Below, piece by piece: positions 9,613 to 28,684 of a stretch of DNA of 64,000 nucleotides. The first letter of the stretch is position 1. Each line of letters starts with the position of its first letter. The notes under the pieces are model-generated. The model did not search any database. It was not told the origin of the DNA and saw only the letters and a program-made list of their open reading frames with translations. Source of the DNA: Enterococcus mundtii (GTDB taxonomy: Bacteria > Bacillota > Bacilli > Lactobacillales > Enterococcaceae); contig NZ_CP025473.1 in NCBI RefSeq assembly GCF_003957375.1, positions 1,265,501 to 1,329,500 of the forward strand, in the 5' to 3' direction. The position numbers and the translations under genes were made by a program.

Positions 9613-9939
9613 TTGAAAAACTCAAAGACTTGGTATTATAAATTACTTTTACTATTTTTATTTCTTGTATTCGCGTATACGGCAAATCGGACCATCCTAA
9701 TTTACGAGAATTTCCGACAACAGACAGAAGATATCGCACAAGTCTTGGTTCGCACAATCGACCAGTTTGGACTAGAAGTTAGTCGCTTTGAGTTTGATTT
9801 TAGCTATAGTATAGCAAGTATCATTGGTACATTGACAATCGTGGGGGGCTTGCTCTTGGTATCTTGTATCATTCAGGTATGCCGAAACATACCGAGTTTG
9901 AATATGGAAGTGCCAGATGGGGCAACAAAAAAGACATAA
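9613..9939 (+). CDS. VirD4 N-terminal membrane part (frame-split)
   Basis: The TTG start at 9613 has a perfect AGGAGG upstream. The encoded 108 aa contain two membrane segments (about 8-25 and 64-84) with a short external loop, the normal N-terminus of a VirD4/TraG coupling protein. The second segment runs into the G6 tract at 9843-9848. A -1 shift there (G GGG GGC in the zero frame) continues as LALGILYHSG... into the conserved EYGSARWGNKKDI of the next ORF, giving a canonical ~579-aa VirD4. Without a shift, translation ends at 9939 in a non-conserved tail. Just before that stop is another classic slippery heptamer, A AAA AAG (9927-9933). It is best read as one gene with 9864-11351, broken or recoded. 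Confidence 0.7.
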   Translation: MKNSKTWYYKLLLLFLFLVFAYTANRTILIYENFRQQTEDIAQVLVRTIDQFGLEVSRFEFDFSYSIASIIGTLTIVGGLLLVSCIIQVCRNIPSLNMEVPDGATKKT

Positions 9940-11351
9940 AGCCAATGATGGATAAAAAAAAAGACAACAATATCATTCTCACAAAAAGTGAATCGCTATC
10001 TATGTCTGGTCGTATGAAGATCACTAAATCTAATAACTTTAATCGGAATAAGAATGTCATCGTAGTAGGAGGAGCTGGATCAGGGAAAACAAGATTTTAT
10101 GTGAAACCAAATTTGATGCAACTGCATTCCTCTTATGTCGTCAGTGATTCTAAAGGACTATTGTTAAGCGAGACAGCAACAATGTTTAAAGAAGCAGGTT
10201 ATGAAATCAAGGTTTTTGACTTGATCACGCGGGAAAATACAGACTACTATAATCCTTTTACTTACATCCGTACCGAAGACGATATTTTAAAAGTCGTCAA
10301 CAACTTGATCAAAAATACTTCAGATCCTGAAAAAAAGGGTGGCGATGATTTTTGGGAAAAAGCTGAAACTGCCTTATTGATGGCTACATTCAGTTATCTT
10401 TTGCAAGAAGTTGATGAAGAAGATCAAACATTGACGAACGTCGTTGAAATGGTCCGCTTAGCAAACTGTCCAGAGGATGTGCCAGATTATGTTTCCCCAC
10501 TAGATGTGATTTTCAATGAACTTGAAGAAAAAGATCCTGCCAACTTTGCAGTGGCGCAATACAAAATTTTCAAATTAGCGGGGGATCGCACCGCAAAAAG
10601 TATTTTAGTCAGCTTAGGTGTGCGATTATCACCTTTTGATATTCCGAATATCAAAAAAATCGTGAGTAAAGATACTTTAGCATTAGACACCGTTGGGGAC
10701 AAGAAAACCATTATCTATATTTTATTGTCAGATACAGATACAAGTTTCAATTTCTTAGCAAGTATGTTGTACCAACAATTATTCGATAGCTTAGTTTACA
10801 AAGCAGACAATGTCTACAAAGGTCGTCTACCACATCATGTGCGATGTGTCTTAGATGAATTTGCCAATATAGGACAGATTCCAGACTTTGAAAAAGTGAT
10901 TTCAGTGATTCGAAGTCGTGAGATATCGGTCAATGTGATCTTACAAAACATTAGTCAGCTTAAAAATTTGTACAAAGATACTTGGGAAACAATCATCGGG
11001 ACCAGTGACGTTTTTCTTTATTTAGGTGGGATGGAGTTAAGCACGCATGAGTATATCTCCAAATTACTAGGAAAGAAAACGATCCAGCACAAGAACATTA
11101 GTATCACCAAAGGTAGTAATGGGAACTACAGTGAAAATTATCAAAAAATGGGTCGGAATTTATTGGATGTAGATGAAGTGGCGAATCTTAGTGGAACAAA
11201 AGCGATTTTGAAGATCCGTGGAATAGTTCCGTTTATCTCAGAAAAATATGATATTACGAAACATAAAAATTATAAAAAACTCGGAGATGTGACTCCAGAG
11301 AATTGGTACGAAAGAAATCAATCACCAAAAAATGAAGAGGAGAATAAATAG
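9864..11351 (+). CDS. virD4: VirD4/TraG-type coupling ATPase, cytosolic part
   Basis: AAA+/RecA-type coupling protein that brings substrates to a type IV secretion channel at the membrane. It opens with the family hallmark EYGSARWGNKKDI, then Walker A GGAGSGKT (about residue 150-160 of the joined protein) and Walker B VRCVLDEFANIG (about 411), plus the conserved ILQNISQLKNLY and TSDVFLYLGG segments. The nominal start is a TTG without a good RBS, inside the upstream ORF and 76 nt overlapped. This argues that the membrane anchor is encoded by 9613-9939 and that the gene is split by a frameshift at the 9843-9848 G run. No relaxase gene accompanies it. The VirB2-like gene starts 2 nt after the stop. 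Confidence 0.9.
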   Translation: MYHSGMPKHTEFEYGSARWGNKKDIKPMMDKKKDNNIILTKSESLSMSGRMKITKSNNFNRNKNVIVVGGAGSGKTRFYVKPNLMQLHSSYVVSDSKGLLLSETATMFKEAGYEIKVFDLITRENTDYYNPFTYIRTEDDILKVVNNLIKNTSDPEKKGGDDFWEKAETALLMATFSYLLQEVDEEDQTLTNVVEMVRLANCPEDVPDYVSPLDVIFNELEEKDPANFAVAQYKIFKLAGDRTAKSILVSLGVRLSPFDIPNIKKIVSKDTLALDTVGDKKTIIYILLSDTDTSFNFLASMLYQQLFDSLVYKADNVYKGRLPHHVRCVLDEFANIGQIPDFEKVISVIRSREISVNVILQNISQLKNLYKDTWETIIGTSDVFLYLGGMELSTHEYISKLLGKKTIQHKNISITKGSNGNYSENYQKMGRNLLDVDEVANLSGTKAILKIRGIVPFISEKYDITKHKNYKKLGDVTPENWYERNQSPKNEEENK

Positions 11352-11353
11352 AA

Positions 11354-11590
11354 ATGAACAATAACCAACAATTATTACAGGATGTATTTAACTTGATTTC
11401 AAGATTTACGATGGTTGGCGGAGGATTATGGATTATTTGGGGAACTGTCATCCTAGCTGGTGCATTAAAAGATAAAAATGGTCCACAGTTACAACAAGGG
11501 ATTTGGCAAGTGGTCGGCGGTGCCTTGATTTTAGTAGCCGCAGTTTGGTTTGTAACTGCATTTGATGTTGGTTCACTTTTAAGTAGATAA
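11354..11590 (+). CDS. VirB2-like (Maff2-type) small membrane protein
   Basis: A 78-aa hydrophobic protein with two membrane helices: FTMVGGGLWIIWGTVILAGAL and a second at WQVVGGALILVAAVWFVTAF. They are separated by a charged loop (KDKNGPQLQQG). The size, topology and slot between virD4 and virB6 match the Maff2/VirB2-like proteins of Firmicute conjugative elements, thought to be pilin-like or channel components. This assignment rests on context and topology, not on a diagnostic motif. It starts 2 nt after virD4, so translation is probably coupled. Confidence 0.65.
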   Translation: MNNNQQLLQDVFNLISRFTMVGGGLWIIWGTVILAGALKDKNGPQLQQGIWQVVGGALILVAAVWFVTAFDVGSLLSR

Positions 11591-11618
11591 AAAATTTTAA
11601 TAGAAAGAAGGTGAATCA

Positions 11619-12443
11619 GTGCGCGCAGCGATAATGATGCTATTCACCCAGATGATGGGGTACTTGAATGGTGAAAATATTGCAAATACCTTAAGTTTGG
11701 GATTACAAGAATATATGGCTTCTGCCTATAGAGTAGCAGGAGAGATCCAACAAACGATAATAGCTCCAGTAGCTTTTTCCATACTAGCGGTATTTATCTT
11801 ATTTGAGTTTCAAAAAATTTCTTTAAAAGTGGAGAATGCTGGTGGTGCTCCTACTTTGGGATTTGAAATGATCATGAAATCCTTTGTGAAATTTATTATT
11901 TGCTATATTGTCATCTTAAGAATTCAAGTGATCCTTGATGCTATTGTCGCATTAGGATCGATGTTAGCTGGACAAATACTGGCATACAATAGAACCGATC
12001 TTTTAGACTCTTATTACAATGTTGTGGATTCAGTCGTACAAAGCCTTTCGTGGTGGGAAGTAATGGTTGTATTAATGATCTTTGTGGTTCTATTCCTTGT
12101 TTCTTTAGTTGTAGGGGTTTTTATCCATGTTATCGTATACCTGAGGTTTTTTGAGTTATATATCTTTAGTGCGATTGCTCCTATTTCAATGGCGGCATTA
12201 CCTAATCAAGAATTTTCAACTATGGCAAAAGGATTTTTCAAGAATTTTGCCGCTTCCTCACTGCATGCTGTAATGATTGCATTAGTGTTGACCATTTATC
12301 CTTTGATTTTCGTGAATTTTTTGGATAGTCATAGAAGAGGTATGTGGTCGTTGATTTTTGGTTTGACGATTTACATGATTGCTTTGATTTTTGCAATCAA
12401 CAAAACGAAAGGATGGGCGAAGATGATTGTATCTGCCTCATAG
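11619..12443 (+). CDS. VirB6-like polytopic membrane protein
   Basis: A 274-aa integral membrane protein with about six hydrophobic segments, including IAPVAFSILAVFILFEF, FIICYIVILRIQVIL, VMVVLMIFVVLFLVSLVVGVF and an Ala/Ser-rich YIFSAIAPISMAALP. The latter resembles the conserved central region of VirB6/TrbL-type channel proteins of Gram-positive T4SSs. The GTG start at 11619 is preceded by GAAAGAAGG. It sits in the expected order VirB2-like, VirB6, PrgI, VirB4. It probably forms part of the inner translocation channel. Confidence 0.75.
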   Translation: MRAAIMMLFTQMMGYLNGENIANTLSLGLQEYMASAYRVAGEIQQTIIAPVAFSILAVFILFEFQKISLKVENAGGAPTLGFEMIMKSFVKFIICYIVILRIQVILDAIVALGSMLAGQILAYNRTDLLDSYYNVVDSVVQSLSWWEVMVVLMIFVVLFLVSLVVGVFIHVIVYLRFFELYIFSAIAPISMAALPNQEFSTMAKGFFKNFAASSLHAVMIALVLTIYPLIFVNFLDSHRRGMWSLIFGLTIYMIALIFAINKTKGWAKMIVSAS

Positions 12444-12458
12444 AAAGGAGTAAAAGTG

Positions 12459-12809
12459 ATGGCAATTGAAGTAAAAGTCCATAAAGATGTACGCGAATAT
12501 AAAGAGCGGATCGTAGCCGGCATGAGCGTACGTCAATTAGGCTTTCTGTCTGTCGCAGGTTTGACTAATATCGTGATCAGTTTTGTGTTTGTTCGTTTTT
12601 TTGGCTATTCCATGGACGTAATCAGTTGGTTGATGATTCTCGTTTCAATGCCAATCGTCGCTTTTGGGTGGCTAAAAAAAGAGGGACTGCCTTTTGAACG
12701 CTATTTGAAATACTTTTTTATTTACCATTTTGATCAAGGAGTAGTTGTTTATGAAGAATCTGATACGTCCCAATTTCATGAAAGTGAACTTCAGACAAAA
12801 CAAGAATAA
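12459..12809 (+). CDS. prgI: PrgI family (VirB3-like) protein
   Basis: A 116-aa protein with the PrgI layout. A soluble N-terminus (MAIEVKVHKDVREYKERIVAG, compare the typical start of PrgI proteins) precedes two membrane helices, LGFLSVAGLTNIVISFVFV and VISWLMILVSMPIVAFGW, and a conserved KKEGLPFERYLKYFF. VirB3/PrgI proteins anchor the VirB4 ATPase to the channel. The ATG at 12459 has AAAGGAG at good spacing. The gene overlaps virB4 by 59 nt, and virB4 has its own RBS inside it, which implies translational coupling. Confidence 0.88.
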   Translation: MAIEVKVHKDVREYKERIVAGMSVRQLGFLSVAGLTNIVISFVFVRFFGYSMDVISWLMILVSMPIVAFGWLKKEGLPFERYLKYFFIYHFDQGVVVYEESDTSQFHESELQTKQE

Positions 12810-15060
12810 GAAAAATATGCAAGAAGAAAAAAAATCTTTTTTACTTTTTGAAGAAATCTATGATAACGGCATTTGTCTAATTTCTGAGAATGAATACTCA
12901 ATAACGATTAATATTGACGATATAAGTTATCAGCTTTGTTCCGAGGAACAACGTATGCAGAATTTCATTAAATATTGTGAGTTTTTAAATTCTTTAGAAG
13001 CTTCTATCGATTACAAAGTCACACTGGTAAAAAAGAAAAAAACAGTCGAAGAATTGAATCATGTGCTTTTTAAAGAAAAAAATGAACAATATGATGATAG
13101 ATACCGTCAAGAAATGAATGACTATCTAAAAGCGAAAATCAACGAAAAGAAGAATGCGTTTGAAAAGAAAATTTTTATTACCTTTACTCAAAAACATGAG
13201 AATCAGGAATTTGCTGAAAGAGAGTTGCTCTTAATTGCCGATCAAATGGATTTATTCGCTCGAAAAATTGGTTCTAGCATCCATATTTTAAAAGGGGAAG
13301 AACGCAAAGAATTGATCGGTCAAATCCTAAATAATGAGAATCATACATTACTACCGAAACAAGTCGATCTCAAATTAGATAAACACCTGATCAGAATCGA
13401 TAACAAACTAAATCAGACCCTCTATCTGAATGGTTATCCTGCCGAACTATCAGATGAATGCTTGACAGGACTTATGGAGATCGATGAGGAAATCACTCTT
13501 ACAGTGAGTTGTAAACCGATACCGATGGCAAGTAGTTTCGATTTAGTAAAGACTAAAATGGCTTATATGGATCAGCAGAAAGTGGATGAGCAGCGTAAAG
13601 CCTTAAACAGTGGGTACGATTATGACATGCTACCATATGATCTAACTTATTCTCTGGATGAAGCAAAAGAGCTTTTAGATTCATTACAAAGTAAAAGCCA
13701 GAAACTATTTGAAGTAACTGTGTTGATCAATTTCTACGCAGAGAATCAGGATAAATTAAATAAAATCGCCAGTAAAATCAAATCGGTAGGACGAAGATTT
13801 GGCTGCACGATCATTGAACTTGCTTATTTACAGAAGCTTGCTTTAAATACGAGTTTACCAATTGGAAAAAATCATGTTCCATTGAATCGATTATTAGCCA
13901 CATCGGCGGTTGCTGCATTGATGCCATTCTCAATTTCTGAAATGCTCCATGAGAACGGAAATTATTATGGAATCAATTCAGTGACAAAAAATCTAACGAT
14001 TCTTGATCGAAAGAAACTAATGGCACCGAATGGATTTGTCTTGGGGACACCAGGATCAGGTAAGAGTTTCTCTGTCAAACGAGAAATCGTTAATGTTTTA
14101 CTTAGGAACGACAAAGACGAAGTGATCGTCATTGATCCTGAATCGGAATATCAGCATATTTGTTCAGAATTTGATGGCCAAATGGTTCGATTGGCTGGTA
14201 ATTCAAACACCTGCATCAATCCAATGGATATTAATAGTAACTATGGCGATGATGCAGACCCAATCGCTTTAAAAACCCAATTTTTGATTTCACTTTGTGA
14301 GCTGATCACTGGAGGTATTTTAGGATTATCTTCCCAACAAAAAACAATCATCGACCGAGTATGCCGAAAAATTTACCAAGAACAGACGCAGTTACCGACA
14401 TTAAAAGAGTTTTATATGGCGCTAAATGCACAGCCAGAAGAAGAAGCAAAGCAATTGGCGATTGAATTAGAACTTTACACAGAAGGTAGTTTAGCACTAT
14501 TTTCTAAAAAAACAAATGTGGATCTGAATAAACGTTTGATTATTTTTGACATCAAAGATTTAGGAAAACAACTCAAGCCGTTTGGAATGTTAGTTGTGTT
14601 AGATCAAATTTGGAACCGAATCACGTTGAATCGAGAATCAGGAATTCGTACATGGTTATATATTGATGAATTACAGTTACTCTTTACAAATGAATACTCA
14701 GAAAATTATTTCTTTGAATTGTGGAGTAGGGCAAGAAAGTGGGGCGCTATACCGACGGGGATCACCCAAAATGTAGAGACGTTATTGCTTTCGGATCTAG
14801 CTAGAAGAATGCTTTCAAATAGTGATTTCGTTGTCATGTTCAATCAAGCAAAATCTGACCGCTCAGAGTTGACTCGTTTATTCGATATATCGGAAGAGCA
14901 GGAAAAGTATGTGTTGAATGGAAGTGAAGGTACTGGATTGATGGTGTTTGGGGACACGATCATCCCATTTGAAGACCGACTTCCTAAAGAAACAAATCTC
15001 TATCAAATTATGACAACTAAACCTGGTGAAGAGGTAAAGACAAAGCAAGATTATGAATGA
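12751..15060 (+). CDS. virB4: VirB4-type T4SS ATPase
   Basis: The motor ATPase of the secretion machine, 769 aa from the ATG at 12751 (AAGGAG 9 nt upstream). The N-terminal TraC/VirB4-type domain is followed by the ATPase core with Walker A GTPGSGKS near residue 431, the conserved VIDPESEYQHICSEFDGQM, Walker B TWLYIDELQLLF near 633, and the WSRARKWGAIPTGITQN segment typical of the family. Length is normal. It overlaps the next gene by 8 nt. Together with VirD4, VirB6 and PrgI it establishes that this operon encodes a T4SS-like machine. Confidence 0.95.
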   Translation: MKNLIRPNFMKVNFRQNKNKKNMQEEKKSFLLFEEIYDNGICLISENEYSITINIDDISYQLCSEEQRMQNFIKYCEFLNSLEASIDYKVTLVKKKKTVEELNHVLFKEKNEQYDDRYRQEMNDYLKAKINEKKNAFEKKIFITFTQKHENQEFAERELLLIADQMDLFARKIGSSIHILKGEERKELIGQILNNENHTLLPKQVDLKLDKHLIRIDNKLNQTLYLNGYPAELSDECLTGLMEIDEEITLTVSCKPIPMASSFDLVKTKMAYMDQQKVDEQRKALNSGYDYDMLPYDLTYSLDEAKELLDSLQSKSQKLFEVTVLINFYAENQDKLNKIASKIKSVGRRFGCTIIELAYLQKLALNTSLPIGKNHVPLNRLLATSAVAALMPFSISEMLHENGNYYGINSVTKNLTILDRKKLMAPNGFVLGTPGSGKSFSVKREIVNVLLRNDKDEVIVIDPESEYQHICSEFDGQMVRLAGNSNTCINPMDINSNYGDDADPIALKTQFLISLCELITGGILGLSSQQKTIIDRVCRKIYQEQTQLPTLKEFYMALNAQPEEEAKQLAIELELYTEGSLALFSKKTNVDLNKRLIIFDIKDLGKQLKPFGMLVVLDQIWNRITLNRESGIRTWLYIDELQLLFTNEYSENYFFELWSRARKWGAIPTGITQNVETLLLSDLARRMLSNSDFVVMFNQAKSDRSELTRLFDISEEQEKYVLNGSEGTGLMVFGDTIIPFEDRLPKETNLYQIMTTKPGEEVKTKQDYE

Positions 15061-18000: not shown

Positions 18001-18391
18001 TGGTACTTTTCATGGTGATAAGTATTGGAGATGGTATGGTTTTGAAGGGAGAGTTGAATGGTGTGCGATCTTCGTAAGTTGGGTAGCAGATCAAGTCGGG
18101 TACCTTAATCAAGAAAAAATAATAAAATCAGCAAATTGTTTAGAGATGATCAACTGGTTAACGGAAAAAGGAAACTATAGGAAAACTTCAGAGAGTTACC
18201 ACCCACAACCAGGTGATTTGATTTTCTTTGACTGGAATGGAGGTGGTACAGGGAAAGATCATGTGGGAATCGTGGAATTTACAGATGGAAATATCATCCA
18301 AACCGTCGAGGGCAATACTTCCAATAAAGTAGCCAGAAGAACCTATTTCCTCAATGATCCGAGCATTTCGGGGTACGGTATTCTTCAATAA
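15053..18391 (+). CDS. VirB1-like bifunctional peptidoglycan hydrolase (lysozyme + CHAP)
   Basis: A 1112-aa wall-opening enzyme for the T4SS channel. Residues 1-275 are an extremely Lys/Arg-rich, presumably cytoplasmic region with recurring LxGIK motifs (LLGIKKRK, LAGIKNTL, LFGIKDKL). A long membrane segment follows (about 276-322), then an extracellular stretch including eight acidic 13-aa repeats (about 445-548). A lysozyme-like/SLT domain (about 815-920) has catalytic Glu in IIQVESGG, and a CHAP-type domain (about 965-1112) has Cys in EWCAIFVSWVA and His in KDHVGIVEF. The Tn916 Orf14/CwlT-type enzymes have the same pair of domains but lack the big basic and acidic regions. ATG at 15053 overlaps virB4. 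The CHAP domain could be called NlpC/P60-like. Confidence 0.88.
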   Translation: MNETYEGNKQENNKQQDLLSIKLNRVSTKEQKKKALKKRLRLKKRQQQLARKKRDNLQLKNRNIVDFKQHMVNSQSRKDPLSKGVTSKKTNDSGFKKRHLMTNKKKLNKINRNKKHSTTREKAYFIKNKHRSPKEIDHALLGIKKRKSSTHNSRTNQRIQLSSEKINKQKLGSKKFYHKKSESLDKNALDLAGIKNTLTANKQSSAKKLEDKLFGIKDKLERKHQVLSNSNKIKRLKKQTKIPSKKKFKPKLKKNLAQAAIDTVGRNKEGELNILGVLLVLLIILKLILMLLSVKVMMILAVVIVVIVVIIAIFNFIASIFTIKTEDMALAEAYEHVTFLDAKMNKEVQKVFEDFSENSEIEEVYFVVNGVARPDNNFLYSSDADTYLYYLNAKYENYDIQQRISADSNLFGATRVRGEVEGIHRYTFSYTTEIETREVPIIYPEEDDGTEEAPEESEEDDGTEEAPEESEEDSGTDEAPEESEEDSGTDEAPEGSEEDSGTDEAPEESEEDSGTDEAPEESEEDSGTEEAPEESEEDDGTDEAPEELEDSGTEETLEEDDDTSQETNDLEEEIEESENEEESSSHEAQTNRNPSDEQPDPPIEEDRPTHRTIKVALINIEIKTISQFIDENSDTLSEEEKDKFGPIQELDRFENKVFLQSPFGMNQEAIVVEKYGYRGLNDRNKQNYIELLAEAGKPVYGIDNSGSGRVHAVGNSSVTINTSLNKRVVLSPLKNIKVRNRDWVNAETLIGETTGNLKVEVIERRTLRPNRHIYPSAYIFDLIYQYPSEIEGFIHDSSRSISGSLKNPGQMILQWEHLVREACEKYGIPEYVNMILAIIQVESGGDAERFPDIMQASESQGLAPNTIEDPELSIDRGTHYFSQLLGKAKTLHLDDRAALQAYNYGEDFLNWLATTNKQYSFLHAELYARKKSNRQIVRYTHPVAVAHGFSWRYAYGNMFYVPIVTNYLWLENSRFLETAINEIGTFHGDKYWRWYGFEGRVEWCAIFVSWVADQVGYLNQEKIIKSANCLEMINWLTEKGNYRKTSESYHPQPGDLIFFDWNGGGTGKDHVGIVEFTDGNIIQTVEGNTSNKVARRTYFLNDPSISGYGILQ
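16385..16696 (+). repeat. Eight tandem 39-bp acidic repeats
   Basis: Eight in-frame units of 13 aa with consensus EED(D/S)GT(E/D)EAPEES, inside the extracellular part of the hydrolase. Units differ by a few bases only, so copy number probably varies between strains. Confidence 0.93.
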
Positions 18392-18410
18392 AAAAAGAAA
18401 AGGGCGAACA

Positions 18411-19340: not shown

Positions 19341-19379
19341 TCGACTCTGAAAAAATTCTTCATTGAATGGAGGAGACCG

Positions 19380-22300: not shown

Positions 22301-23816
22301 AGTAGAGGAATCTTCCTCAGACACTCAAAATAGCCAAATGAGAAATCAGATGAGTGAAGGTGGGGAACCGAAATCAACGAAACTGGATGAAGCGAGTATA
22401 GCCACTCGAGGAATGGATAAAAAACAGTCGGAAAACACAACTGATCCTTTAGATAAACTTGGAATAGACGCTAGTAGTAGTACTTTTGGTTTAAATGAGA
22501 ATGCTTCAGAGAAAACGGATAAAGCTACAGAAACTGATTTTATGGATGACGATATAGAATTGCCAGAGTCAGGACCGCATACACAAAAAAAGAAAATCCA
22601 CACAAAAAAAAGCCGAGCTATCCAAATCGGAAGGTTTTTCTTGAACTTACTACCACTAGCATCTTGGCCATTGATCAGTATGTGGGTGACTGCCATTTTA
22701 GGTATCGTCCCAGCTTACCTTGCGATGTATGGACTTCCACTAACTCTGTTGGTTTACGGTACGATTTTGGCTGCTGCTTATGGACCAAAATTGATCAATT
22801 ATATACGAAAACTTCGTTCTAGAATACAAACCTATCGTCAGACAGAACGAAATCGACAGAGAAACTTAGAAGATCGAGTAATTGATCCAAAAGAAAAATC
22901 GATTCAAAGGGAAACTACCGTTCATGAGAAAGATACAACAAAAACAAAACAACAAAATCATTCATCAGAAAAATTCAGTCCTGAAGATCCGGAAAAAGAT
23001 AAATCTGTAAAGGGCTATTTTAAAAGAAATTGGAAATCTTTTGCGATCATCATTGGTGTGGGTATAGCTATAGCAGGAATTGGTATCGCACTGACACCAG
23101 TTGTTGCGCCATTCATTTTCACAGCAGCCACAGCTCCTGCTTTATTTAAAGTAACTTCAGTTATTGCAATGGGACTTGCTGTCTCCTTTGGTGTAACTGC
23201 TTTGAGTAAAGGACTTCATGCGCTACAAAGAAAGTATTATAAAAAAGAAGACCCAACATTAGAAACGCCGACGCAAAAAGAGACAATCGAAAAAAACTCT
23301 TTAGAAGTAGACAGGAATTTTGATAAATCTAATGAAAAAGTGGATAAGGATGATCGGATATCTGCTCATGATAGTTCTTCAATAAAAAATGCTGGATCAA
23401 AAGAAGATGGAATGAAAGTGGCTAACGCCGAAATGAAGTCAACGGATAAAAGTCCGTATGCATGGGTCTATGGTCAAGAGACAGAAAATAAAACCCAAAA
23501 TGAATCGAATCGTTCAAGTCGGTCGAATTCTTTCAATACCCATGAAACAGTTCATGTGAAAGCGGATATTCATGAGCCACCATCACAGTCAGCTCGTGAA
23601 AACCGCGCGACCAATCAATTAAGTGAAGCTACAAGACATCGAGTGGATAATATGAAATCTGAAAGTAATCCACAGATTGCTGAACAGAATAAAGGAAACA
23701 ATCGTCAGCCAGCCGTCAAAGAGGCATTTGATTCAATCAAACAAAAAGCAATTTCGAAGAGTAATAATGTCAGTGGCAAACCCCTGCTGAAAGGTCAGAT
23801 ATCTTTTGAAAAATGA
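19380..23816 (+). CDS. Giant repeat-rich membrane protein (1478 aa)
   Basis: Not recognised. Residues 1-120 are a helical N-domain (MFYKKFEDYLKEYLNKD...). Residues ~120-950 are hydrophilic, Asn/Gln/Arg/Glu-rich and built of repeats: a duplicated ~67-aa block and ten 26-aa units (PExTGxVxAxRDQFExxNxxSN). A short motif TGxxNEEFQxRRxxFEN recurs between them. Two hydrophobic hairpins follow (about 1086-1135 and 1218-1278), then a charged tail ending in AISKSNNVSGKPLLKGQISFEK. GGAGGAGA precedes the ATG. There is no signal peptide, so the repeat region is probably cytoplasmic unless exported by the machine. A related C-terminal AISKSN motif occurs in the protein at 26641-27201. It may be a scaffold or a secreted effector. 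Confidence 0.75.
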   Translation: MFYKKFEDYLKEYLNKDISIKSVKPYEEKVFNEFQAKAILDSNPETLREEFHFVLDLISSRKEVNEEKTNDLKQSFDRMIRGIDPSDYNALRFSIYKSRMMVLKENIRERETSSKEVPPTFTSNTSLQASDELVSPKLVAEQEKRFAEQATLNKRGNGKQEALSNEQIKENVATYVNSVHTTNQYTKKEHHQRPKVSDLKQRFEKETSYNIEPHSAEVPSGTVNRLRQYYEGLNHSINDHSSLESRESSRWRTSQTNDSPNVQNRQNQPTDRQNQRNEGTSSYQKAPPLKGTSELVRRGNERTVYTNESSPTNKAEPDQTGMTNEEFQRRRGRFGNMAGPSNQQPVIERTNQRETDNYQTATYQNPLRQQRSSELVHEGQTSRIDNNDSLRTNNAELSQTSKANEEIQRYRDQFGNVAGPSNQQPVIERTNQRGTDNYQTATYQNPPRKQRSSELVHEGQTSRIDNNDSLRTNNAELNQTGRGDEESQNLIARFDNLTSTSNEPSFSKKKSHGESEHQGTSYQRATPMHGSSEIVRKGNERAVYTNESSSANKTKSNQTGLTNEEFQNRRAQFENPSVKSDNRLAPESTGRVRAATERFEKANELSNARPAPESTGRVRAVRDQFENPNAFSNERSIPEPTGRVKAVRDQFEKANEFSNARPAPESTGQVRAARDQFENPNAFSNERPVPEPTGQVRAVRDQFEKANEFSNARPAPESTGRVRAVRDQFENPNAFSNERSIPEPTGRVKAVRDQFEKANEFSNARPAPESTGQVRAARDQFENPNDHPNERPVPEPTGRVKAVRDQFEKANEFSNDRPAPESTGRVKAMRDQFEKANEFSNARPVPESTGRVEAMRRQYESRTGRETEDSVSNETLQQQTGLANETFRQRRGQFENPAVKSSDGQKSEESVTSDQLDLRKEPSNQSTALSADQTGIVAGNTKKIRELLADKLKFNPIEKEPPETNTQTDSSHAPVEESSSDTQNSQMRNQMSEGGEPKSTKLDEASIATRGMDKKQSENTTDPLDKLGIDASSSTFGLNENASEKTDKATETDFMDDDIELPESGPHTQKKKIHTKKSRAIQIGRFFLNLLPLASWPLISMWVTAILGIVPAYLAMYGLPLTLLVYGTILAAAYGPKLINYIRKLRSRIQTYRQTERNRQRNLEDRVIDPKEKSIQRETTVHEKDTTKTKQQNHSSEKFSPEDPEKDKSVKGYFKRNWKSFAIIIGVGIAIAGIGIALTPVVAPFIFTAATAPALFKVTSVIAMGLAVSFGVTALSKGLHALQRKYYKKEDPTLETPTQKETIEKNSLEVDRNFDKSNEKVDKDDRISAHDSSSIKNAGSKEDGMKVANAEMKSTDKSPYAWVYGQETENKTQNESNRSSRSNSFNTHETVHVKADIHEPPSQSARENRATNQLSEATRHRVDNMKSESNPQIAEQNKGNNRQPAVKEAFDSIKQKAISKSNNVSGKPLLKGQISFEK
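20380..20819 (+). repeat. Direct duplication, 240-bp period
   Basis: About 200 bp beginning near 20380 (GGACCCAGTAACCAACAACC region) recurs near 20620 with only a few differences. It encodes duplicated blocks with AGPSNQQPVIERTNQR and SELVHEGQTSRIDNNDSLR. Confidence 0.85.
21135..21960 (+). repeat. Ten 78-bp coding repeats plus a partial unit
   Basis: In-frame 26-aa units starting at each PESTG/PEPTG. Two unit types alternate (QFEKANEFSNARPA and QFENPNAFSNERxx). Units 2-5 (21213-21524) are repeated almost exactly as units 6-9 (21525-21836), so a 312-bp block was duplicated on top of the 78-bp amplification. Confidence 0.92.
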
Positions 23817-23836
23817 AGAATACGGAGAGAGATTCA

Positions 23837-24514
23837 ATGAATAAAATCAAATTAATGAGCATATTTAGTGTCATCATGTTGCTCCTGCATTTTCCAGTTA
23901 ATGTTTATGCACTTAATATTAGTCTCGATGAGATCCATGAAGGAAAGAGCTTACGTGAGTGGTTGCATGACGAAGGAGAAAAAGCAATTTCTCAACAAAT
24001 CACTACTACTCCACAAGCAAATAATTCTTTAGGTGTGGAGCCAGGAGAGAGCGTCACTTTTTCAGTTAATATCCCAACCTATGCCATGGTGACAGACCAT
24101 AATGGCTGGATTCCAGCTATTACAGGAGGCAAGCACGGGAATACTCCTGTGCCCAATATCTTTTATACTCAAATGCATTATGGAAATGCACCTAATCTGT
24201 CCGGTAGTTACAGAATAGGTGATGTAACTGCCGCAAATCTTCCTTCTGGAATGAGTATTAGCAGGGTAGTTGGCCCAACTACGGGAAATTTTACAAGAGT
24301 TGATGTGACAATCACAAGGAATCAGGTGAGTACTATAAATGGTCATGATAGCTCGATCAATCTTAACTTGAGTACGCTTTATTTAGATACATGGGCGATT
24401 GACCCAACAACTGCTGCTCTTTTTGGTCATGAGCCAATCAATGCAGGGGGATTACGCTTACTAATCTTAATCTTGGAACATTGTCGCTGCGAACAAAAAA
24501 TTCAATCAGAGTGA
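23837..24514 (+). CDS. MucBP adhesin, N-terminal part (frame-split)
   Basis: Start ATG 23837 follows GGAGAG. A signal peptide (MNKIKLMSIFSVIMLLLHFPVNVYA) leads into a secreted N-domain with IPTYAMVTDHNGWIPAITGG and beta-rich LNLSTLYLDTWAI segments. At the G5 run 24446-24450 the frame is lost. The present ORF ends 24514 with an unrelated tail, while the -1 frame reads GITLTNLNLGTLSLRTKNS and continues seamlessly into the next ORF. One extra G gives a 924-aa protein. So 23837-26610 is one adhesin gene, disrupted by a 1-base deletion, a sequencing undercall or phase variation. Confidence 0.72.
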   Translation: MNKIKLMSIFSVIMLLLHFPVNVYALNISLDEIHEGKSLREWLHDEGEKAISQQITTTPQANNSLGVEPGESVTFSVNIPTYAMVTDHNGWIPAITGGKHGNTPVPNIFYTQMHYGNAPNLSGSYRIGDVTAANLPSGMSISRVVGPTTGNFTRVDVTITRNQVSTINGHDSSINLNLSTLYLDTWAIDPTTAALFGHEPINAGGLRLLILILEHCRCEQKIQSE

Positions 24515-26610
24515 GATATATCGATGAGGCAGGGAATGAACTCCGAGATTCACTGGTAGAACAAATGGAAGTTGGTCAAAACTATGCGTATACACCTCCA
24601 GTCATTCCGGGATATACCTTCAGCAGATTATCATCTGGAAGCGCAAGTGCTTCCGGTCAGATGGCAGCTGGTCCGGAAAGACTTATTGAATTTGTCTATA
24701 CAAAGAATCCTACAATAGGCGGAGCAATCACAGTGAACCATGAATTTATCGGTGCTCCGACCATGAACAGCAGTGAGCGATTCACAAACGTAGGAAATGT
24801 GGGTGATCGCTTTGAGTTGACCCCTAGAACAGAGGACGGCTGGCGAGTAAAAGGTGAATTGCCACAAGTGACCGTGACAGAACAAGCCCAAACGGTCACG
24901 ATCCAATATGAGCGACAAACTGGCGGAGCAATCACAGTGAACCATGAATTTATCGGTGCTCCGACCATGAACAGCAGTGAGCGATTCACAAACGTAGGAA
25001 ATGTGGGCGATCGCTTTGAGTTGACCCCTAGAACAGAGGACGGCTGGCAAGTAAAAGGTGAATTGCCACAAGTGACCGTGACAGAACAAGCCCAAACGGT
25101 CACGATCCAATATGAGCGACAAACTGGCGGAGCGATCACAGTGAACCACGAATTTATCGGTGCTCCGACCATGAACAGCAGTGAGCGATTCACAAACGTA
25201 GGAAATGTGGGCGATCGCTTTGAATTGACCCCTAGAACAGAGGACGGCTGGCAAGTAAAAGGTGAATTGCCACAAGTGACCGTGACAGAACAAGCCCAAA
25301 CGGTCACGATCCAATATGAGCGACAAACTGGCGGAGCGATCACAGTGAACCACGAATTTATCGGTGCTCCGACCATGAACAGCAGTGAGCGATTCACAAA
25401 CGTAGGAAATGTGGGCGATCGCTTTGAGTTGACCCCTAGAACAGAGGACGGCTGGCAAGTAAAAGGTGAATTGCCACAAGTGACCGTGACGGAAGAAGCA
25501 CAAACGGTCACGATCCAATATGAACGACAAACTGGCGGAGCAATCACCGTGAACCATGAATTTATCGGTGCTTCGACTATGAATAGTAGTGAGCGATTCA
25601 CAAACGTAGGAAATGTGGGCGATCGCTTTGAGTTGACCCCTAGAACAGAGGCTGGCTGGCAAATAAAAGGTGAATTGCCGCAAGTGACCGTGACAGAACA
25701 AGAACAAACAGTCACGATCCAATATGAACGACAAACTAGCGGAGCGATCACCGTGAACCATGAATTTATCGGTGCTCCGACCATGAACAGCAGTGAGCGA
25801 TTCACAAACGTAGGAAATGTGGGCGATCGCTTTGAATTGACCCCTAGAACAGAGGACGGCTGGCAAGTAAAAGGTGAATTGCCACAAGTGACCGTGACAG
25901 AACAAGCCCAAACGGTCACGATCCAATATGAACGACAAACTAGCGGAGCGATCACCGTGAATCACGAATATATTGATGAGCCGTCATTGAATATGAGTGA
26001 AATTTTTACAGATGTAGGAAATGTGGGCGAGCAATTCGAGTTAATACCAAAACTACTTGCAGGCTGGCAAATAAAAGGTGAATTGCCACAAGTGACAGTA
26101 ACGGAACAAGCACAAACGGTCACGATCCAATACGAGCGTAAAATTGGCGGTCAAGTAGTCGTTAACCACATTTTTGAGGAAACGTCTGAAAAAAATCGAA
26201 TGGACATTCTACTTGGACGTTGGGGAGAAGCTTTTAAGGCAGAGCCAATGCAAATAGCTGGTTGGGAAGTGAAAGAAACCATCGGTCAACCTACAGGTGT
26301 ATTTACAGACGAGGAGCAAGAGATAAATTTCATCTATGTTAGAAGTGAGGAGCAGCCGATACCAGAGGAAGACAAACCTAATGATAATAAGGATAAGCAC
26401 CCTGAAACAAAACCGGTAGACCAAGGATCGAATAAAACACCACCAACTAAAAAGAATAATGGAGTTACAATCAGAAGAAAAGAAGAGAAGCGTTCGCTAC
26501 CAAAATTGAATAGTCAAGCAGGAATTTCCTTAACTGTAGGAGGGACGTCAATCGTTGCATTTGTCTTTTGGAAACAACTAAAAAAGCGAACTAAATGTAA
26601 AAACAAATGA
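24481..26610 (+). CDS. MucBP-repeat surface adhesin, main part
   Basis: It encodes a MucBP-type module (VRYIDEAGNELRDSLVEQ, ending EFVYTKN) and six nearly identical 68-aa repeats (GGAITVNHEFIGAPTMNSS...VTIQYERQ) plus two diverged ones. MucBP domains bind mucin or glycoproteins. The C-terminus has a polar linker, then LPKLN, a hydrophobic stretch (ISLTVGGTSIVAFVFW) and a basic tail, the layout of a sortase-anchored protein but with LPKLN instead of LPxTG. The nominal TTG start at 24481 has no RBS; the true N-terminus lies in the frame at 23837. It sits inside the T4SS-like operon, which suggests the machine and adhesin act at the same surface. Confidence 0.88.
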   Translation: MSLRTKNSIRVRYIDEAGNELRDSLVEQMEVGQNYAYTPPVIPGYTFSRLSSGSASASGQMAAGPERLIEFVYTKNPTIGGAITVNHEFIGAPTMNSSERFTNVGNVGDRFELTPRTEDGWRVKGELPQVTVTEQAQTVTIQYERQTGGAITVNHEFIGAPTMNSSERFTNVGNVGDRFELTPRTEDGWQVKGELPQVTVTEQAQTVTIQYERQTGGAITVNHEFIGAPTMNSSERFTNVGNVGDRFELTPRTEDGWQVKGELPQVTVTEQAQTVTIQYERQTGGAITVNHEFIGAPTMNSSERFTNVGNVGDRFELTPRTEDGWQVKGELPQVTVTEEAQTVTIQYERQTGGAITVNHEFIGASTMNSSERFTNVGNVGDRFELTPRTEAGWQIKGELPQVTVTEQEQTVTIQYERQTSGAITVNHEFIGAPTMNSSERFTNVGNVGDRFELTPRTEDGWQVKGELPQVTVTEQAQTVTIQYERQTSGAITVNHEYIDEPSLNMSEIFTDVGNVGEQFELIPKLLAGWQIKGELPQVTVTEQAQTVTIQYERKIGGQVVVNHIFEETSEKNRMDILLGRWGEAFKAEPMQIAGWEVKETIGQPTGVFTDEEQEINFIYVRSEEQPIPEEDKPNDNKDKHPETKPVDQGSNKTPPTKKNNGVTIRRKEEKRSLPKLNSQAGISLTVGGTSIVAFVFWKQLKKRTKCKNK
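24718..26145 (+). repeat. Seven 204-bp MucBP tandem repeats
   Basis: Units start at 24718, 24922, 25126, 25330, 25534, 25738 and 25942. The first six are almost base-identical, the seventh has diverged (HEYIDEPSLNMSEIF), and a distant eighth module follows at 26146. Near identity implies recent amplification or gene conversion and makes the region prone to assembly collapse. Confidence 0.95.
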
Positions 26611-26640
26611 TACCAATCATTGACTTAAAGGAGGAGTTTA

Positions 26641-27201
26641 ATGATCACCAATGAACAGCCTGATCCAGAGGTAAAAACGTTGCAAAAAACATCGTTGAGA
26701 ACACCTAAATATGGTTTTATGGGACTAAAATATTTAGGAAGATTTGTCGTCAAGGTGACGAAGATGATCAAAAATAGAATCACAAAAAAGAAAGAAAAAG
26801 AACAATCACCTTTAGAAGCATCTGCTAATACGACGAAGGCAGCTAAAAAACAACCTGTCAAAGCGGAAGCTGCGAAAGAAAAAGCGCCTGTTGTAAAAAA
26901 TATCGCAACAAAAACCAATCGGAATCTTTTTCAGTTTTTATATAAATTAGGAGCGAACTTCATGAAGTTTGATCTATTAAAGAGTATAAAAACACTCGGA
27001 ATCGGAGCGACATCTTCACAACGAAGGATTAAATCAGCCGAAGTCAAGTCAGAAAAAGTGGTAAAACAACAATCCGTTGCTAAAGTCAAAAAATTAAGTT
27101 TTGCTACAGTAAAAAAAGAGGCGATCAGTAAAAGTAATAAAATCAATCAATTATCAAAAAATAATCAGTTAACAAGAAGACCATCATTGCAAAGATCATA
27201 A
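26641..27201 (+). CDS. Very basic hypothetical protein, AISKSN tail
   Basis: A 186-aa protein unlike any family I recognise. Highly Lys-rich, no signal peptide. It has a weak amphipathic stretch (NLFQFLYKLGANFMKFDLLKSIKTLGIG, about 98-125) between two Lys/Ala-rich arms. The C-terminus SFATVKKEAISKSNKINQ... parallels SIKQKAISKSNNVSG at the end of the 1478-aa protein. Strong AAGGAGGAG RBS, 27 bp after the adhesin gene, so clearly in the operon. Possible roles are T4SS substrate, nucleic-acid binder or membrane-peripheral assembly factor; none is proven. Confidence 0.65.
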   Translation: MITNEQPDPEVKTLQKTSLRTPKYGFMGLKYLGRFVVKVTKMIKNRITKKKEKEQSPLEASANTTKAAKKQPVKAEAAKEKAPVVKNIATKTNRNLFQFLYKLGANFMKFDLLKSIKTLGIGATSSQRRIKSAEVKSEKVVKQQSVAKVKKLSFATVKKEAISKSNKINQLSKNNQLTRRPSLQRS

Positions 27202-27247
27202 GGAATTTTCATGATCAATTTGAGCCATCCTGATTGGAGGAGAAACA

Positions 27248-27418
27248 ATGGAACATGAGCGTATGAGTAATGAGCAACGAAGAATAGGCCGTGAAACTAA
27301 GCGAATCCAAGCAATGAAAAGGATAGAAGAAAACAAGAGAGAGCAAGAACGCGTTTATTTAGAGAATGTTCGATCGTCAGAAGCATTCAAACGTGCGTTA
27401 CAAAAAAATAAAAAATAA
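27248..27418 (+). CDS. Small charged helical protein (56 aa)
   Basis: ATG 27248 has a perfect GGAGGAG eight bases upstream. It encodes 56 mostly Arg/Glu/Lys residues (MEHERMSNEQRRIGRETKRI...) ending EAFKRALQKNKK. No family recognised. Predicted to be one long amphipathic helix. The excellent RBS and its place between two operon genes support it as real. Confidence 0.6.
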   Translation: MEHERMSNEQRRIGRETKRIQAMKRIEENKREQERVYLENVRSSEAFKRALQKNKK

Positions 27419-27493
27419 CAAATAAGTCATTTGGTTCATGGATAATAGCGTGAAGACAGATCAAGGATTTCTTTAAGAAAGTGGGAATGATAA

Positions 27494-28684
27494 ATGGATG
27501 AACAACTCGTAAAATTAAATCAAAGAATTGAACGTATAAAAGATATCAATGATCCTGAATATGATCACTTAGTAGCAGAGAGAAATAAGTTGCGACAACA
27601 AATTGCTGCACGGAATGAAAAGAAGTCCACCGTTCAATCTAGTAACTCGAGAGCTATTGAAGTAAAATCAGATCCTGAAAAAATTCAGCAGTTAACGGAA
27701 AAAATCTCAACAATACAAGTGAAAATAGACCGCATCAAAGATATGAGTGATCCTCGCTATGAACAATATAAAGCGGAGAAAGCACAGTTGATTCAAGAAA
27801 GAGAATCAGAAAGACTTAAATCAGGTCAGGGTAGTAAATCGACAAAAAGAATAGACATATCAAGCCAAATGAAAGGGTCGGCACCAATTGTTCAAGCAGA
27901 TTTAAAACAAGCCAAAAAAATGATTCATCATGAACTTGATGATCATTTTGAAAAATTATCCGTTTTTTTTGATCAATATAAATTTCAGTATGATTCATCA
28001 AATGATGAGAAAAATATTAATGAATTAGGTGATAAAATCATAATGCATAAAAAAAGATATGACTTGAAGATGGATGCTAGTTTCAAGGATGCGGGTTTCT
28101 ATGGCAGGTTTAAACAACATCAAACACAAAGTGAATTAGCACTTGGTAATTTCATTGAAAACTGGAAAGAAGATCAAGGTTACTACCGAGATACTCATTC
28201 CGTTTTTGAAAAAATCCATGAATTAAAAGAAACAATCCTAAAAAATCATAACTTAGAAAAATACAATATGAAAGTCAACACGAAACAAAATGAATTAGCC
28301 GAATTACAAAGTAAAAAACAACGAATCAATTTTTTTAGTAAGTATATTTTTAACCGACAAAAATATCGTCAGTTAAAAAGTCAAATTAATGAATTGAAAA
28401 ATGATTTAGACATCGTACAAAAAGCTCGATTACTAGCTATGAAAGGCGATTATTCAAAAGCAGAGACTTTATTCAATGTGAGTGAGCGTACGGGAACTTC
28501 TCATGAAGTGAAGCAACGAAGACTGACACAAAAAACATTAACACCTTCCTTAGCGACAAATATTGCCGGTCCCAGTAAGCTACACGACAAAATGGAAGCA
28601 AGCGTAAGCAAATCAGCAGAAATCATGCAACGCAAGAGTTCAGAGAAATTGCGTAGTTCTTCCCCTAAAGAGCAACGCGCATAA
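27494..28684 (+). CDS. Coiled-coil hypothetical protein, last gene of T4SS-like run
   Basis: A 396-aa hydrophilic protein without signal or membrane segments. An internal duplication is visible: RIKDINDPEYDHLVAERNKL (about 18-37) and RIKDMSDPRYEQYKAEKAQL (about 83-102). Long Lys/Glu helices follow (about 240-330, coiled-coil-like). The tail EASVSKSAEIMQRKSSEKLR is basic and loosely resembles the AISKSN tails of two operon neighbours. RBS GTGGGA is weak. It may be a cytoplasmic scaffold, chaperone or substrate of the secretion machine (inference). A palindromic hairpin follows the stop. Confidence 0.7.
   Translation: MDEQLVKLNQRIERIKDINDPEYDHLVAERNKLRQQIAARNEKKSTVQSSNSRAIEVKSDPEKIQQLTEKISTIQVKIDRIKDMSDPRYEQYKAEKAQLIQERESERLKSGQGSKSTKRIDISSQMKGSAPIVQADLKQAKKMIHHELDDHFEKLSVFFDQYKFQYDSSNDEKNINELGDKIIMHKKRYDLKMDASFKDAGFYGRFKQHQTQSELALGNFIENWKEDQGYYRDTHSVFEKIHELKETILKNHNLEKYNMKVNTKQNELAELQSKKQRINFFSKYIFNRQKYRQLKSQINELKNDLDIVQKARLLAMKGDYSKAETLFNVSERTGTSHEVKQRRLTQKTLTPSLATNIAGPSKLHDKMEASVSKSAEIMQRKSSEKLRSSSPKEQRA

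What the first reader, a model, noticed from the sequence alone, without database searches (positions are those of the whole stretch)
9613..28684. Relaxase-less type IV secretion-like operon fused to adhesin and repeat-protein genes
Seen: contiguous genes for VirD4, a VirB2-like protein, VirB6-like, PrgI, VirB4 and a lysozyme+CHAP hydrolase, then a bitopic protein, a 1478-aa repeat membrane protein, a MucBP adhesin and three basic or coiled-coil proteins, in one direction with tiny gaps. Known: Firmicute conjugative systems pair these components with a relaxase and usually an integrase. Here both flanks are core genes inside the window and no such gene is seen. Inference: a domesticated T4SS that exports proteins or builds a surface structure, with the non-enzymatic downstream genes as substrates or scaffold.
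Basis: partly seen in the sequence, partly recalled or inferred. Interest (0 to 1): 0.85.

Follow-up and report, generated by a model that had tools for sequence, protein, structure and literature searches.

The report
Relaxase-less conjugation machine kept in Enterococcus
An Enterococcus keeps in its chromosome a machine built like those that pass plasmids between cells, but without the DNA-handling parts; it looks repurposed to export the bacterium's own proteins, a use long suspected but hardly documented in Gram-positive bacteria.

Summary
The T4SS gene run at 9613-28684 is real: VirD4 (CD1115 family), VirB2-like, VirB6, PrgI, VirB4 (CD1110 family), lysozyme+CHAP hydrolase, then a bitopic protein, large membrane protein, adhesin, basic and coiled-coil proteins, between nth and pbp1A of an E. 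mundtii relative. No relaxase or integrase was found in the island. It is not a one-off remnant. Two related genomes hold the same island with VirD4 and adhesin intact, and VirD4 and VirB4 show housekeeping-grade purifying selection. A sister system (56-58% VirB4) occurs in 9 of 15 genus genomes, mostly upstream of rpoB, and its VirB4 diverged in step with its chromosomal neighbours; no MOBP relaxase lies on those contigs. The nearest outgroups carry relaxases. The large and basic proteins recur in both systems, the versions searched hit none of 72,556 plasmids, and their tails share a weak C-terminal motif, with clear misses. Best reading: a domesticated protein-exporting T4SS, possibly off in this strain. 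Export itself is not shown.

The parts
886..1551 (+). nth (endonuclease III), left flank of the island
   Evidence: Pfam HhH-GPD 1.2e-28; dnaD-nth ... pbp1A-recU order in 12 of 12 other genus genomes examined
3125..3982 (+). Mga-like regulator, N-terminal piece (gene split by an IS)
   Evidence: Pfam Mga 2.7e-8; one 498-aa ORF in G004 and G008
4046..5509 (+). IS transposase (DDE_Tnp_1_6/DUF772) inserted in the regulator
   Evidence: Pfam 3.2e-30; absent from the G004 and G008 islands
5657..6181 (+). Mga-like regulator, C-terminal piece
   Evidence: 98% identical to the matching part of the intact 498-aa regulator
8117..9577 (+). intact Mga-like regulator directly upstream of the T4SS genes
   Evidence: Pfam HTH_11 3.3e-8, Mga 4.2e-5; 99.6% identical in G004 and G008, dN/dS 0.02-0.03
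9613..9939 (+). VirD4 coupling protein, membrane-anchor piece (frame broken here)
   Evidence: one ORF with the next part in G004 and G008; frame change in a homopolymeric tract
9864..11351 (+). VirD4 coupling ATPase body (CD1115 family)
   Evidence: NCBIfam NF045973 521 bits, cut-off 250; Pfam T4SS-DNA_transf 8.3e-67; dN/dS 0.007 and 0.029
11354..11590 (+). VirB2-like small membrane protein (name by position)
   Evidence: no Pfam match above cut-off, no NCBIfam match; homologues at the same position in many Firmicute T4SS loci
11619..12443 (+). VirB6/TrbL-like channel protein
   Evidence: Pfam TrbL 2.3e-5, 24.7 bits against cut-off 25.9; position and homologues
12456..12809 (+). PrgI/VirB3
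   Evidence: Pfam PrgI 8.5e-22
12745..15060 (+). VirB4 ATPase (CD1110 family); likely start ATG at 12751
   Evidence: NCBIfam NF045971 878 bits, cut-off 325; dN/dS 0.036-0.046
15053..18391 (+). VirB1-like hydrolase: basic N-terminus, hydrophobic segment (my reading), lysozyme-like and CHAP domains
   Evidence: Pfam Lysozyme_like 1.6e-45, CHAP 1.4e-11; PDB relative 4hpe (Tn916-like CTn1-Orf17) 8.4e-40
18354..19340 (+). bitopic protein with two beta-rich domains after one N-terminal helix (likely start 18411); probable machine part
   Evidence: in 3 of 3 A and 8 of 9 B copies and in Paenibacillus, Lacticaseibacillus and clostridial T4SS loci; AF2 mean pLDDT 73.8; no PDB fold match at E<=0.001
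19380..23816 (+). large protein: variable repeats, two hydrophobic hairpins (my reading; no TM predictor run), basic tail with FDSIKQKAISKSN; candidate substrate
   Evidence: C-terminal family in 8 genomes with A/B loci, the G010 remnant and 2 weak matches, of 395 order genomes; tail motif; dN/dS 0.32-0.41
23813..24514 (+). surface adhesin, N-terminal piece with apparent signal peptide (frame broken here)
   Evidence: one ORF with the next part in G004 and G008
24481..26610 (+). surface adhesin, MucBP repeats and C-terminal wall-anchor-like end (my reading)
   Evidence: Pfam MucBP 8.1e-63, 9 stretches
26641..27201 (+). basic 186-aa protein, tail FATVKKEAISKSN; candidate substrate
   Evidence: no family match; tail similar to that of 19380-23816, p=0.002; dN/dS 0.05-0.11
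27248..27418 (+). 56-aa charged ORF with GGAGGAG upstream
   Evidence: 58 aa in G008; the simple search used did not find it in G004
27494..28684 (+). coiled-coil-like 396-aa protein; candidate substrate (weaker)
   Evidence: no Pfam or NCBIfam match, one weak PHROG match at 0.009; tail motif p=0.115, not significant; dN/dS 0.24-0.27
28691..28727 (.). 18-nt inverted repeat, terminator-like, after the last gene of the run
28832..33369 (+). adjacent surface-protein cluster (DUF285/MucBP protein, 174-aa protein, WxL-like protein, small anchored protein); not shown to belong to the T4SS
   Evidence: Pfam DUF285, Flg_new_2, MucBP; conserved in G004 and G008; WxL and anchor names are my reading of the sequence
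33424..35832 (-). pbp1A, right flank of the island
   Evidence: Pfam Transgly 6.7e-62

Best explanation
The gene run is a monoderm type IV secretion machine that lost the DNA-processing half of a conjugative system and was kept by the chromosome as a protein exporter. Inferred working: a Mga-like regulator switches the operon on; VirB4 with PrgI, VirB6 and the VirB2-like protein builds the membrane channel; the lysozyme+CHAP protein opens the wall; the two-domain bitopic protein lines the wall passage in place of a recognisable VirB8; VirD4 docks locally encoded proteins (the large two-hairpin protein, the basic protein, possibly the coiled-coil protein) by a basic C-terminal segment and feeds them to the channel; the adhesin brings cells together. 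Shown: gene content, no relaxase or integrase found in the island, conservation, constraint, phylogeny, a partial tail motif. Inferred: regulation, export, docking by the tail, cell-cell delivery. In this strain VirD4 and the adhesin are frame-broken, so the system is probably off, recently lost, or misassembled here, while intact copies exist in two relatives.
For: Components. No relaxase or integrase found in the island. Island at nth-pbp1A in 3 of 15 genus genomes; in the 12 others no T4SS match at that site, and 9 of them have at most about 0.75 kb there. dN/dS: VirD4 body 0.007 and 0.029, VirB4 0.036-0.046, against nth 0.025-0.055 and pbp1A 0.031-0.048. Sister system B in 9 of 15 genus genomes; its VirB4 divergence tracks flanking core proteins, Mantel rho 0.76, p=0.0008, 8 genomes; 0.79, p=0.003 with the two near-copies left out. 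A and B are sister clades whose nearest outgroups carry a MOBP relaxase within about 8-9 kb of virB4. A's large (C-terminal part), basic and coiled-coil proteins and B's large protein hit 0 of 72,556 plasmids, VirB4 relatives 296. Tail motif: 18 held-out tails Fisher 3.5e-6; 385 other tails 0.92; the four held-out tails of this genome alone 4e-4. Mean tail charge +6.6 over 23 tails against -0.8.
Against: No export was or could be tested. The motif core was aligned by hand from five related tails; orthologous tails are not independent; all three held-out large-protein tails (G013, G014, G001) miss (p 0.25-0.58), and leave-one-out fails for G011 (p=0.44); internal segments show slight inflation (Fisher 0.014); the simpler pairwise test is significant for the large/basic pair of system A (0.002) and barely for that of B in G005 (0.049), and combined without the near-copy gives 0.11. 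None of four relaxase tails of related systems matches. B's VirD4 does not track its neighbours significantly once near-copies are left out (rho 0.34, p=0.12). The basic protein evolves as slowly as the machine (dN/dS 0.05-0.11). No VirB8-like protein was recognised. In this genome VirD4, the adhesin and a regulator are broken; several B copies also show split, missing or interrupted genes (G001, G005, G006, G014). Basic tails would also suit membrane proteins that stay in the producing cell.
Confidence: 0.5

Rival explanations
1. A decaying conjugative element: relaxase and integrase were lost, and this copy is now losing VirD4, adhesin and regulator.
For: Two frameshifts and one IS insertion in this copy; the closest outgroup systems are conjugative-type loci with relaxases; in G010 the sister locus is reduced to the large protein, a truncated VirD4 and a coiled-coil protein; split, missing or interrupted genes in B of G001, G005, G006 and G014.
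Against: Intact orthologues at the same site in two genomes, with housekeeping-grade dN/dS; sister system without a MOBP relaxase on its contig in 9 of 15 genus genomes, its VirB4 diverging with its neighbours. Decay fits this copy and some B copies better than the system as a whole.
Confidence: 0.19
2. A helper machine for mobilising plasmids in trans: relaxases encoded elsewhere dock on this VirD4.
For: VirD4 of a conjugative family is kept under strong constraint; the genome carries a plasmid with a MOBP relaxase.
Against: That plasmid has its own VirB4; 7 of 9 A/B genomes have no MOBP relaxase over the cut-off, two of these seven (G004, G006) having matches below it, other relaxase families being untested there; it does not explain the co-conserved large and basic proteins.
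Confidence: 0.1
3. The large, basic and coiled-coil proteins are membrane or cytoplasmic platform parts of the machine, and the system assembles a surface structure instead of exporting these proteins.
For: Two hydrophobic hairpins flanked by basic stretches suit a resident membrane protein (my reading); a conserved short tail could be an assembly site; the basic protein evolves as slowly as the machine; adhesin and surface-protein genes adjoin.
Against: Faster evolution of the large and coiled-coil proteins (dN/dS 0.24-0.41) than of machine genes (0.00-0.17, leaving out the frame-broken VirD4 end piece, 0.37-0.39, and one very close pair of the bitopic protein, 0.43); no relative of them on the searched plasmids, many with the same kind of machine; a VirD4 coupling ATPase seems unneeded for a mere surface structure, and system C, beside surface-protein genes, has none (inference).
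Confidence: 0.2

Closest known systems
MOBless T4SS (Guglielmini et al. 2011, PMC3158045)
   Same: VirB4 with coupling protein, no relaxase nearby; the authors class such clusters as putative protein exporters (section 11 and passages read).
   Different: A bioinformatic class; the section I read names described protein exporters only in proteobacteria. Here inheritance at fixed sites, constraint and candidate substrates are added.
CD1110/CD1115-type conjugative plasmids and elements, e.g. E. faecium pDY28-optrA; the E. pallens locus L110
   Same: Order VirD4 - small protein - VirB6 - PrgI - VirB4, with a lysozyme hydrolase next in pDY28-optrA.
   Different: They carry a relaxase (pDY28-optrA also MobC, PcfB, ArdC-like and recombinase genes); the window system has none, and has the large, basic and coiled-coil proteins instead.
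pCF10 Prg/Pcf T4SS of E. faecalis
   Same: PrgI, a PrgK-like hydrolase plan, a surface adhesin beside the machine (pCF10 gene roles partly recalled; PrgK and PrgL details in passages of PMC12857230).
   Different: No relaxase, no accessory relaxosome gene and no recognisable PrgL/VirB8 here.
Streptococcus suis 89K T4SS
   Same: Gram-positive T4SS with reported protein secretion (PMC12857230 section 22).
   Different: 89K is reported as a transferable island (PMC3132442, title and start of abstract); no mobility gene other than an IS was found in the Enterococcus island.
Patescibacteria T4SS (PMC12102498, passages only)
   Same: Monoderm T4SS, mostly without relaxase, inferred to be co-opted.
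   Different: Another phylum, with VirB2-like pilins; whether accessory genes are shared was not looked at.

Membership tests
Conjugative element (ICE/plasmid, MPF_FATA) | VirB4 and VirD4/T4CP | tested here: met
   NF045971 878 bits, NF045973 521 bits; VirD4 frame broken in this genome
Conjugative element (ICE/plasmid, MPF_FATA) | Relaxase | tested here: not met
   No relaxase Pfam match in the island ORFs scanned or in four B and five C proteins of this genome; PF03432 only on the plasmid in this genome, and in the nine A/B genomes not on the A or B contigs; PF02486 without match in this genome. The PF01076 search cannot be read: its controls did not ring
Conjugative element (ICE/plasmid, MPF_FATA) | Integrase in the element | tested here: not met
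   Nearest tyrosine recombinase about 82 kb, nearest chromosomal serine recombinase over 900 kb from the island; an IS transposase is present
Conjugative element (ICE/plasmid, MPF_FATA) | oriT | not testable with these tools
   No general model; of three short stretches searched for inverted repeats, two gave one each, both terminator-like in place
MOBless T4SS (putative protein exporter) | VirB4, with or without T4CP, and no neighbouring relaxase | tested here: met
   definition from PMC3158045
MOBless T4SS (putative protein exporter) | Protein export | not testable with these tools
   needs a secretome or translocation assay
Gram-positive T4SS core | VirB8-like NTF2-fold subunit | tested here: inconclusive
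   No such Pfam match; the bitopic protein models as beta-rich domains with no fold match at E<=0.001
T4SS substrates with C-terminal signal | Shared C-terminal recognition motif among cargo | tested here: inconclusive
   Held-out tails Fisher 3.5e-6, 7 of 18 at p<0.05, but orthologues are not independent and all three held-out large-protein tails miss; pairwise test mostly not significant

The most novel reading that the evidence does not exclude
Enterococci of the hirae-durans-mundtii group turned a conjugation machine, once, into a vertically inherited and Mga-regulated contact-dependent injector whose cargo is a family of membrane-inserting proteins (a large two-hairpin protein plus small amphipathic basic proteins) carrying a common VirD4 docking tail, now present as two loci: a dedicated effector-delivery T4SS in Gram-positive bacteria.
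Probability: 0.2. Interest if true: 0.9.

Novelty: new variant of a known kind. Interest (0 to 1): 0.7.

Why it matters
A 2025 review calls it a long-standing question whether Gram-positive T4SSs have become dedicated effector translocators, with one reported case, a pathogenicity island (PMC12857230, section 22). Here are relaxase-less systems at conserved chromosomal sites in culturable enterococci, with strong constraint on VirD4 and named candidate cargo, so the question can be tested by gene deletion and secretome comparison.

Tried and rejected
VirB8 identity for the bitopic protein: no sequence or fold support. A tail signal shared with relaxases of related systems: none of 4 relaxase tails significant (two of the four have the same tail). 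Pairwise tail alignment as a general test: see the Against line. Structure of the large protein's C-terminal part: mean pLDDT 43, not used beyond noting a predicted helix at 404-422 over the motif. Fold search of the bitopic protein: no match at E<=0.001. Sequencing error as the cause of the frameshifts: not excluded. In loci B and C the families shared with G004 differ in length at starts, stretch edges, by small changes, or (F35) by copy number or splitting in G004, which argues against a generally error-rich assembly, but both breaks lie in homopolymeric tracts. Frameshift as a phase switch: possible, only three genomes, not claimed. System C as part of the same story: no VirD4 nearby, and its place in the tree is uncertain because of long branches, so it is kept apart.

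Dropped before counts: in the tail tests A_G008 was left out as a near-copy of A_G000, and A_G004, B_G004 and B_G008 were never entered; G001 was left out of the B Mantel test because its stretch lacks four of the six flank families; the control tails skip the six loci of G004 and G008 and include mechanical ORFs of 100 aa or more. L077 was not held and so not searched for relaxases. The plasmid searches filter low-complexity sequence, which weakens the negative for the basic protein, and B's basic protein was not searched.

Changed on re-check: confidence in the best explanation lowered from 0.55 to 0.50, the decay rival raised from 0.15 to 0.19 and the novel case lowered from 0.22 to 0.20, because all three held-out large-protein tails miss the motif, B's VirD4 does not track its neighbours once near-copies are dropped, and several B copies have broken genes.

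Full report
WHAT IS THERE. The window is C1:1265501-1329500 of a two-contig genome of 2.83 Mb. Named relatives come from matching contig lengths: G008 is Enterococcus mundtii CVM N55263, G001 E. ratti, G011 E. villorum, G006 E. durans, G013 and G005 Enterococcus species without a species name; G014 I take to be E. hirae ATCC 9790 from its chromosome length (recalled). The window's genome is a close relative of E. mundtii (flanking core proteins 3% different); its species name was not obtained. The gene run starts with VirD4 (CD1115 family) and holds a VirB2-like protein (by position), VirB6, PrgI, VirB4 (CD1110 family) and a lysozyme+CHAP hydrolase, followed by a bitopic protein, a 1478-aa repeat protein, a MucBP adhesin, a 186-aa basic protein, a 56-aa ORF and a 396-aa coiled-coil-like protein. 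A terminator-like inverted repeat, 28691-28727, follows it. The scan for promoters and terminators found no excess over shuffles.

BROKEN GENES IN THIS COPY. G004 and G008 have the same island with VirD4 as one 579-aa ORF, the adhesin as one 858- or 857-aa ORF and the first Mga-like regulator as one 498-aa ORF. In the window, VirD4 and the adhesin are each in two frames, both changes lying in homopolymeric tracts, and the regulator is split by an IS. The VirD4 body shows dN/dS 0.007 and 0.029 against the two relatives, so the break is recent or an assembly error. In loci B and C, the families shared with G004 differ in length only at starts, stretch edges, by small changes, or by copy number or splitting on the G004 side.

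NO DNA-PROCESSING GENES FOUND. Pfam scans of 27 ORFs from 129 to 36445 (23 of them inside the island) found no relaxase, relaxosome or recombinase match beyond the IS transposase. In the whole genome the MOBP model rings once, on the plasmid, which also has its own VirB4. Rep_trans gave no match. The Mob_Pre search cannot be read because its controls did not ring. Tyrosine recombinases lie about 82 kb or more from the island, chromosomal serine recombinases over 900 kb. Over the nine genomes with A or B loci, the MOBP model matches in 4 of 9, over its cut-off in 2 of 9, on contigs other than those of A and B; other relaxase families were not sought in those genomes. An oriT cannot be excluded.

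DISTRIBUTION. VirB4 relatives at E<=1e-20 are in 16 of 98 genomes searched. Within the genus (15 genomes, the window's own included), system A (96% identical VirB4) is in 3, system B (56-58%) in 9, system C (44-46%) in 8. A lies at nth-pbp1A in all 3; in 9 of the 12 others these genes are about 0.35-0.75 kb apart by BLAST ends, in three 1.3, 2.4 and 7.7 kb, none with T4SS matches at 1e-8; the 7.7-kb one holds PTS and glycosidase-like genes by my reading. In 8 of 9 B copies the stretch also holds rpoB (named by my reading) about 12-24 kb downstream of virB4; in G013 nearer flank genes are shared but rpoB is not within the stretch. VirB4 distances of B track those of six flanking core proteins (Mantel rho 0.76, p=0.0008; 8 genomes), VirD4 less (0.55, p=0.003), and the C VirB4 likewise (0.82, p=0.004). 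With near-copies left out (6 genomes): B VirB4 0.79, p=0.003; C VirB4 0.84, p=0.008; B VirD4 0.34, p=0.12. So inheritance with the chromosome is supported for VirB4, not independently for VirD4. Several B copies are not whole: the hydrolase ORF is split in G006 and G014, the large protein is broken and the bitopic protein missing in G001, and several kb lie between VirD4 and the VirB2-like gene in G005. In G010 the B site holds the large protein, a truncated VirD4 and a coiled-coil protein without the rest of the machine.

PHYLOGENY. In a 59-row VirB4 tree A and B are sister clades (SH-aLRT 100), near E. pallens / Enterococcus sp. 665A and Lacticaseibacillus systems that carry a MOBP relaxase within about 8-9 kb of virB4. 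This fits one relaxase loss before A and B parted; the quick tree method, the midpoint root and long branches make deeper joins unsure. MOBP relaxases were found in 18 of 32 genomes holding other related loci; one further locus was not searchable.

CONSTRAINT. Pairwise dN/dS among the three A copies: VirD4 body 0.007 and 0.029 (whole gene 0.010 between the intact copies; the frame-broken end piece 0.37-0.39), VirB4 0.036-0.046, VirB2-like 0.00-0.07, PrgI 0.00-0.06, VirB6 0.00-0.12, hydrolase 0.14-0.17, bitopic protein 0.15 (0.43 in one very close pair), basic protein 0.05-0.11, coiled-coil 0.24-0.27, large protein 0.32-0.41; nth 0.025-0.055, pbp1A 0.031-0.048.

CANDIDATE CARGO. The large protein of A and that of B share two hydrophobic hairpins and a basic tail. 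A profile of its C-terminal part matches in 11 of 395 order genomes: 8 with A/B loci, the G010 remnant, and two weak (G011, which has the protein, is not in that listing and was presumably not drawn). The basic proteins of A and B begin alike (DPE[VI] or similar and an amphipathic stretch; my reading). Against 72,556 plasmids, VirB4 hits 296 records, all under 60% identity, while A's large (C-terminal part), basic, coiled-coil and bitopic proteins and B's large protein (C-terminal part) hit none. The best-listed plasmid system, pDY28-optrA, shows the same machine order beside MobC, relaxase, ArdC-like and recombinase genes. A 13-column tail profile from five large-protein tails scores 18 held-out tails above shuffles (7 of 18 at p<0.05; Fisher 3.5e-6), not 385 other tails from the same loci (Fisher 0.92), and 119 internal segments only slightly (Fisher 0.014); tails beat internal segments (p=1.9e-6). 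In this genome the basic protein scores p=0.002 and the coiled-coil protein p=0.115; its four held-out tails together give 4e-4. Limits: hand-aligned core, related species counted separately, all three held-out large-protein tails (G013, G014, G001) and one of five leave-one-out cases (G011) fail.

LITERATURE. I read section 22 of PMC12857230, section 11 of PMC3158045, and passages of PMC12857230, PMC3158045, PMC12102498 and PMC3464263; of PMC3132442 I saw listing and abstract start only. Among the papers listed by eight searches (five of them list only 10 to 20 of more found) no title or abstract start concerns a relaxase-less chromosomal T4SS of E. mundtii, E. hirae or relatives; only open-licence papers are held, so this does not prove novelty.

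VERDICT. A real, conserved pair of T4SS loci without recognised DNA-processing genes, inherited with the chromosome as far as VirB4 shows; the window copy is partly broken. The working model of protein export by VirD4 docking of a basic tail is an inference with moderate support.

Noticed in passing
G000:C1:2241001-2281000 (L055, L056), VirB4 at 2264317-2266614: A third T4SS-like locus (C): VirB6, PrgI, VirB4 and a glucosaminidase/amidase hydrolase without VirD4 or MOBP relaxase, beside a SpaA-repeat surface protein and an Ig-like protein; in 8 of 15 genus genomes.
   Followed up: partly
L055/L056, oriented positions 19203-20216: A locus-C protein with one hydrophobic helix and TPR-like C-terminal part recalls EssB/YukC of type VII secretion (recalled; Pfam gives only weak TPR matches).
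   Followed up: no
window 9864-9939 and 24481-24514: Both frame breaks lie in short homopolymeric G tracts, which could also mean slippage switching.
   Followed up: partly
L156/L157 (G010): Remnant of system B: most machine genes are gone, the large protein and a coiled-coil protein remain beside a truncated VirD4.
   Followed up: partly
window 6422-7792: LPMO_10-type gene in the same island, intact in all three A copies, dN/dS 0.06-0.11.
   Followed up: no
L159 (NZ_MW207670.1): Plasmid pDY28-optrA is typed non-mobilizable by MOB-suite although MobC, relaxase, VirD4 and VirB4 genes are annotated.
   Followed up: no
L158 (G005, nth-pbp1A): The same nth-pbp1A site carries an unrelated sugar-uptake-like cluster in another species, so it may be an insertion hot spot.
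   Followed up: partly
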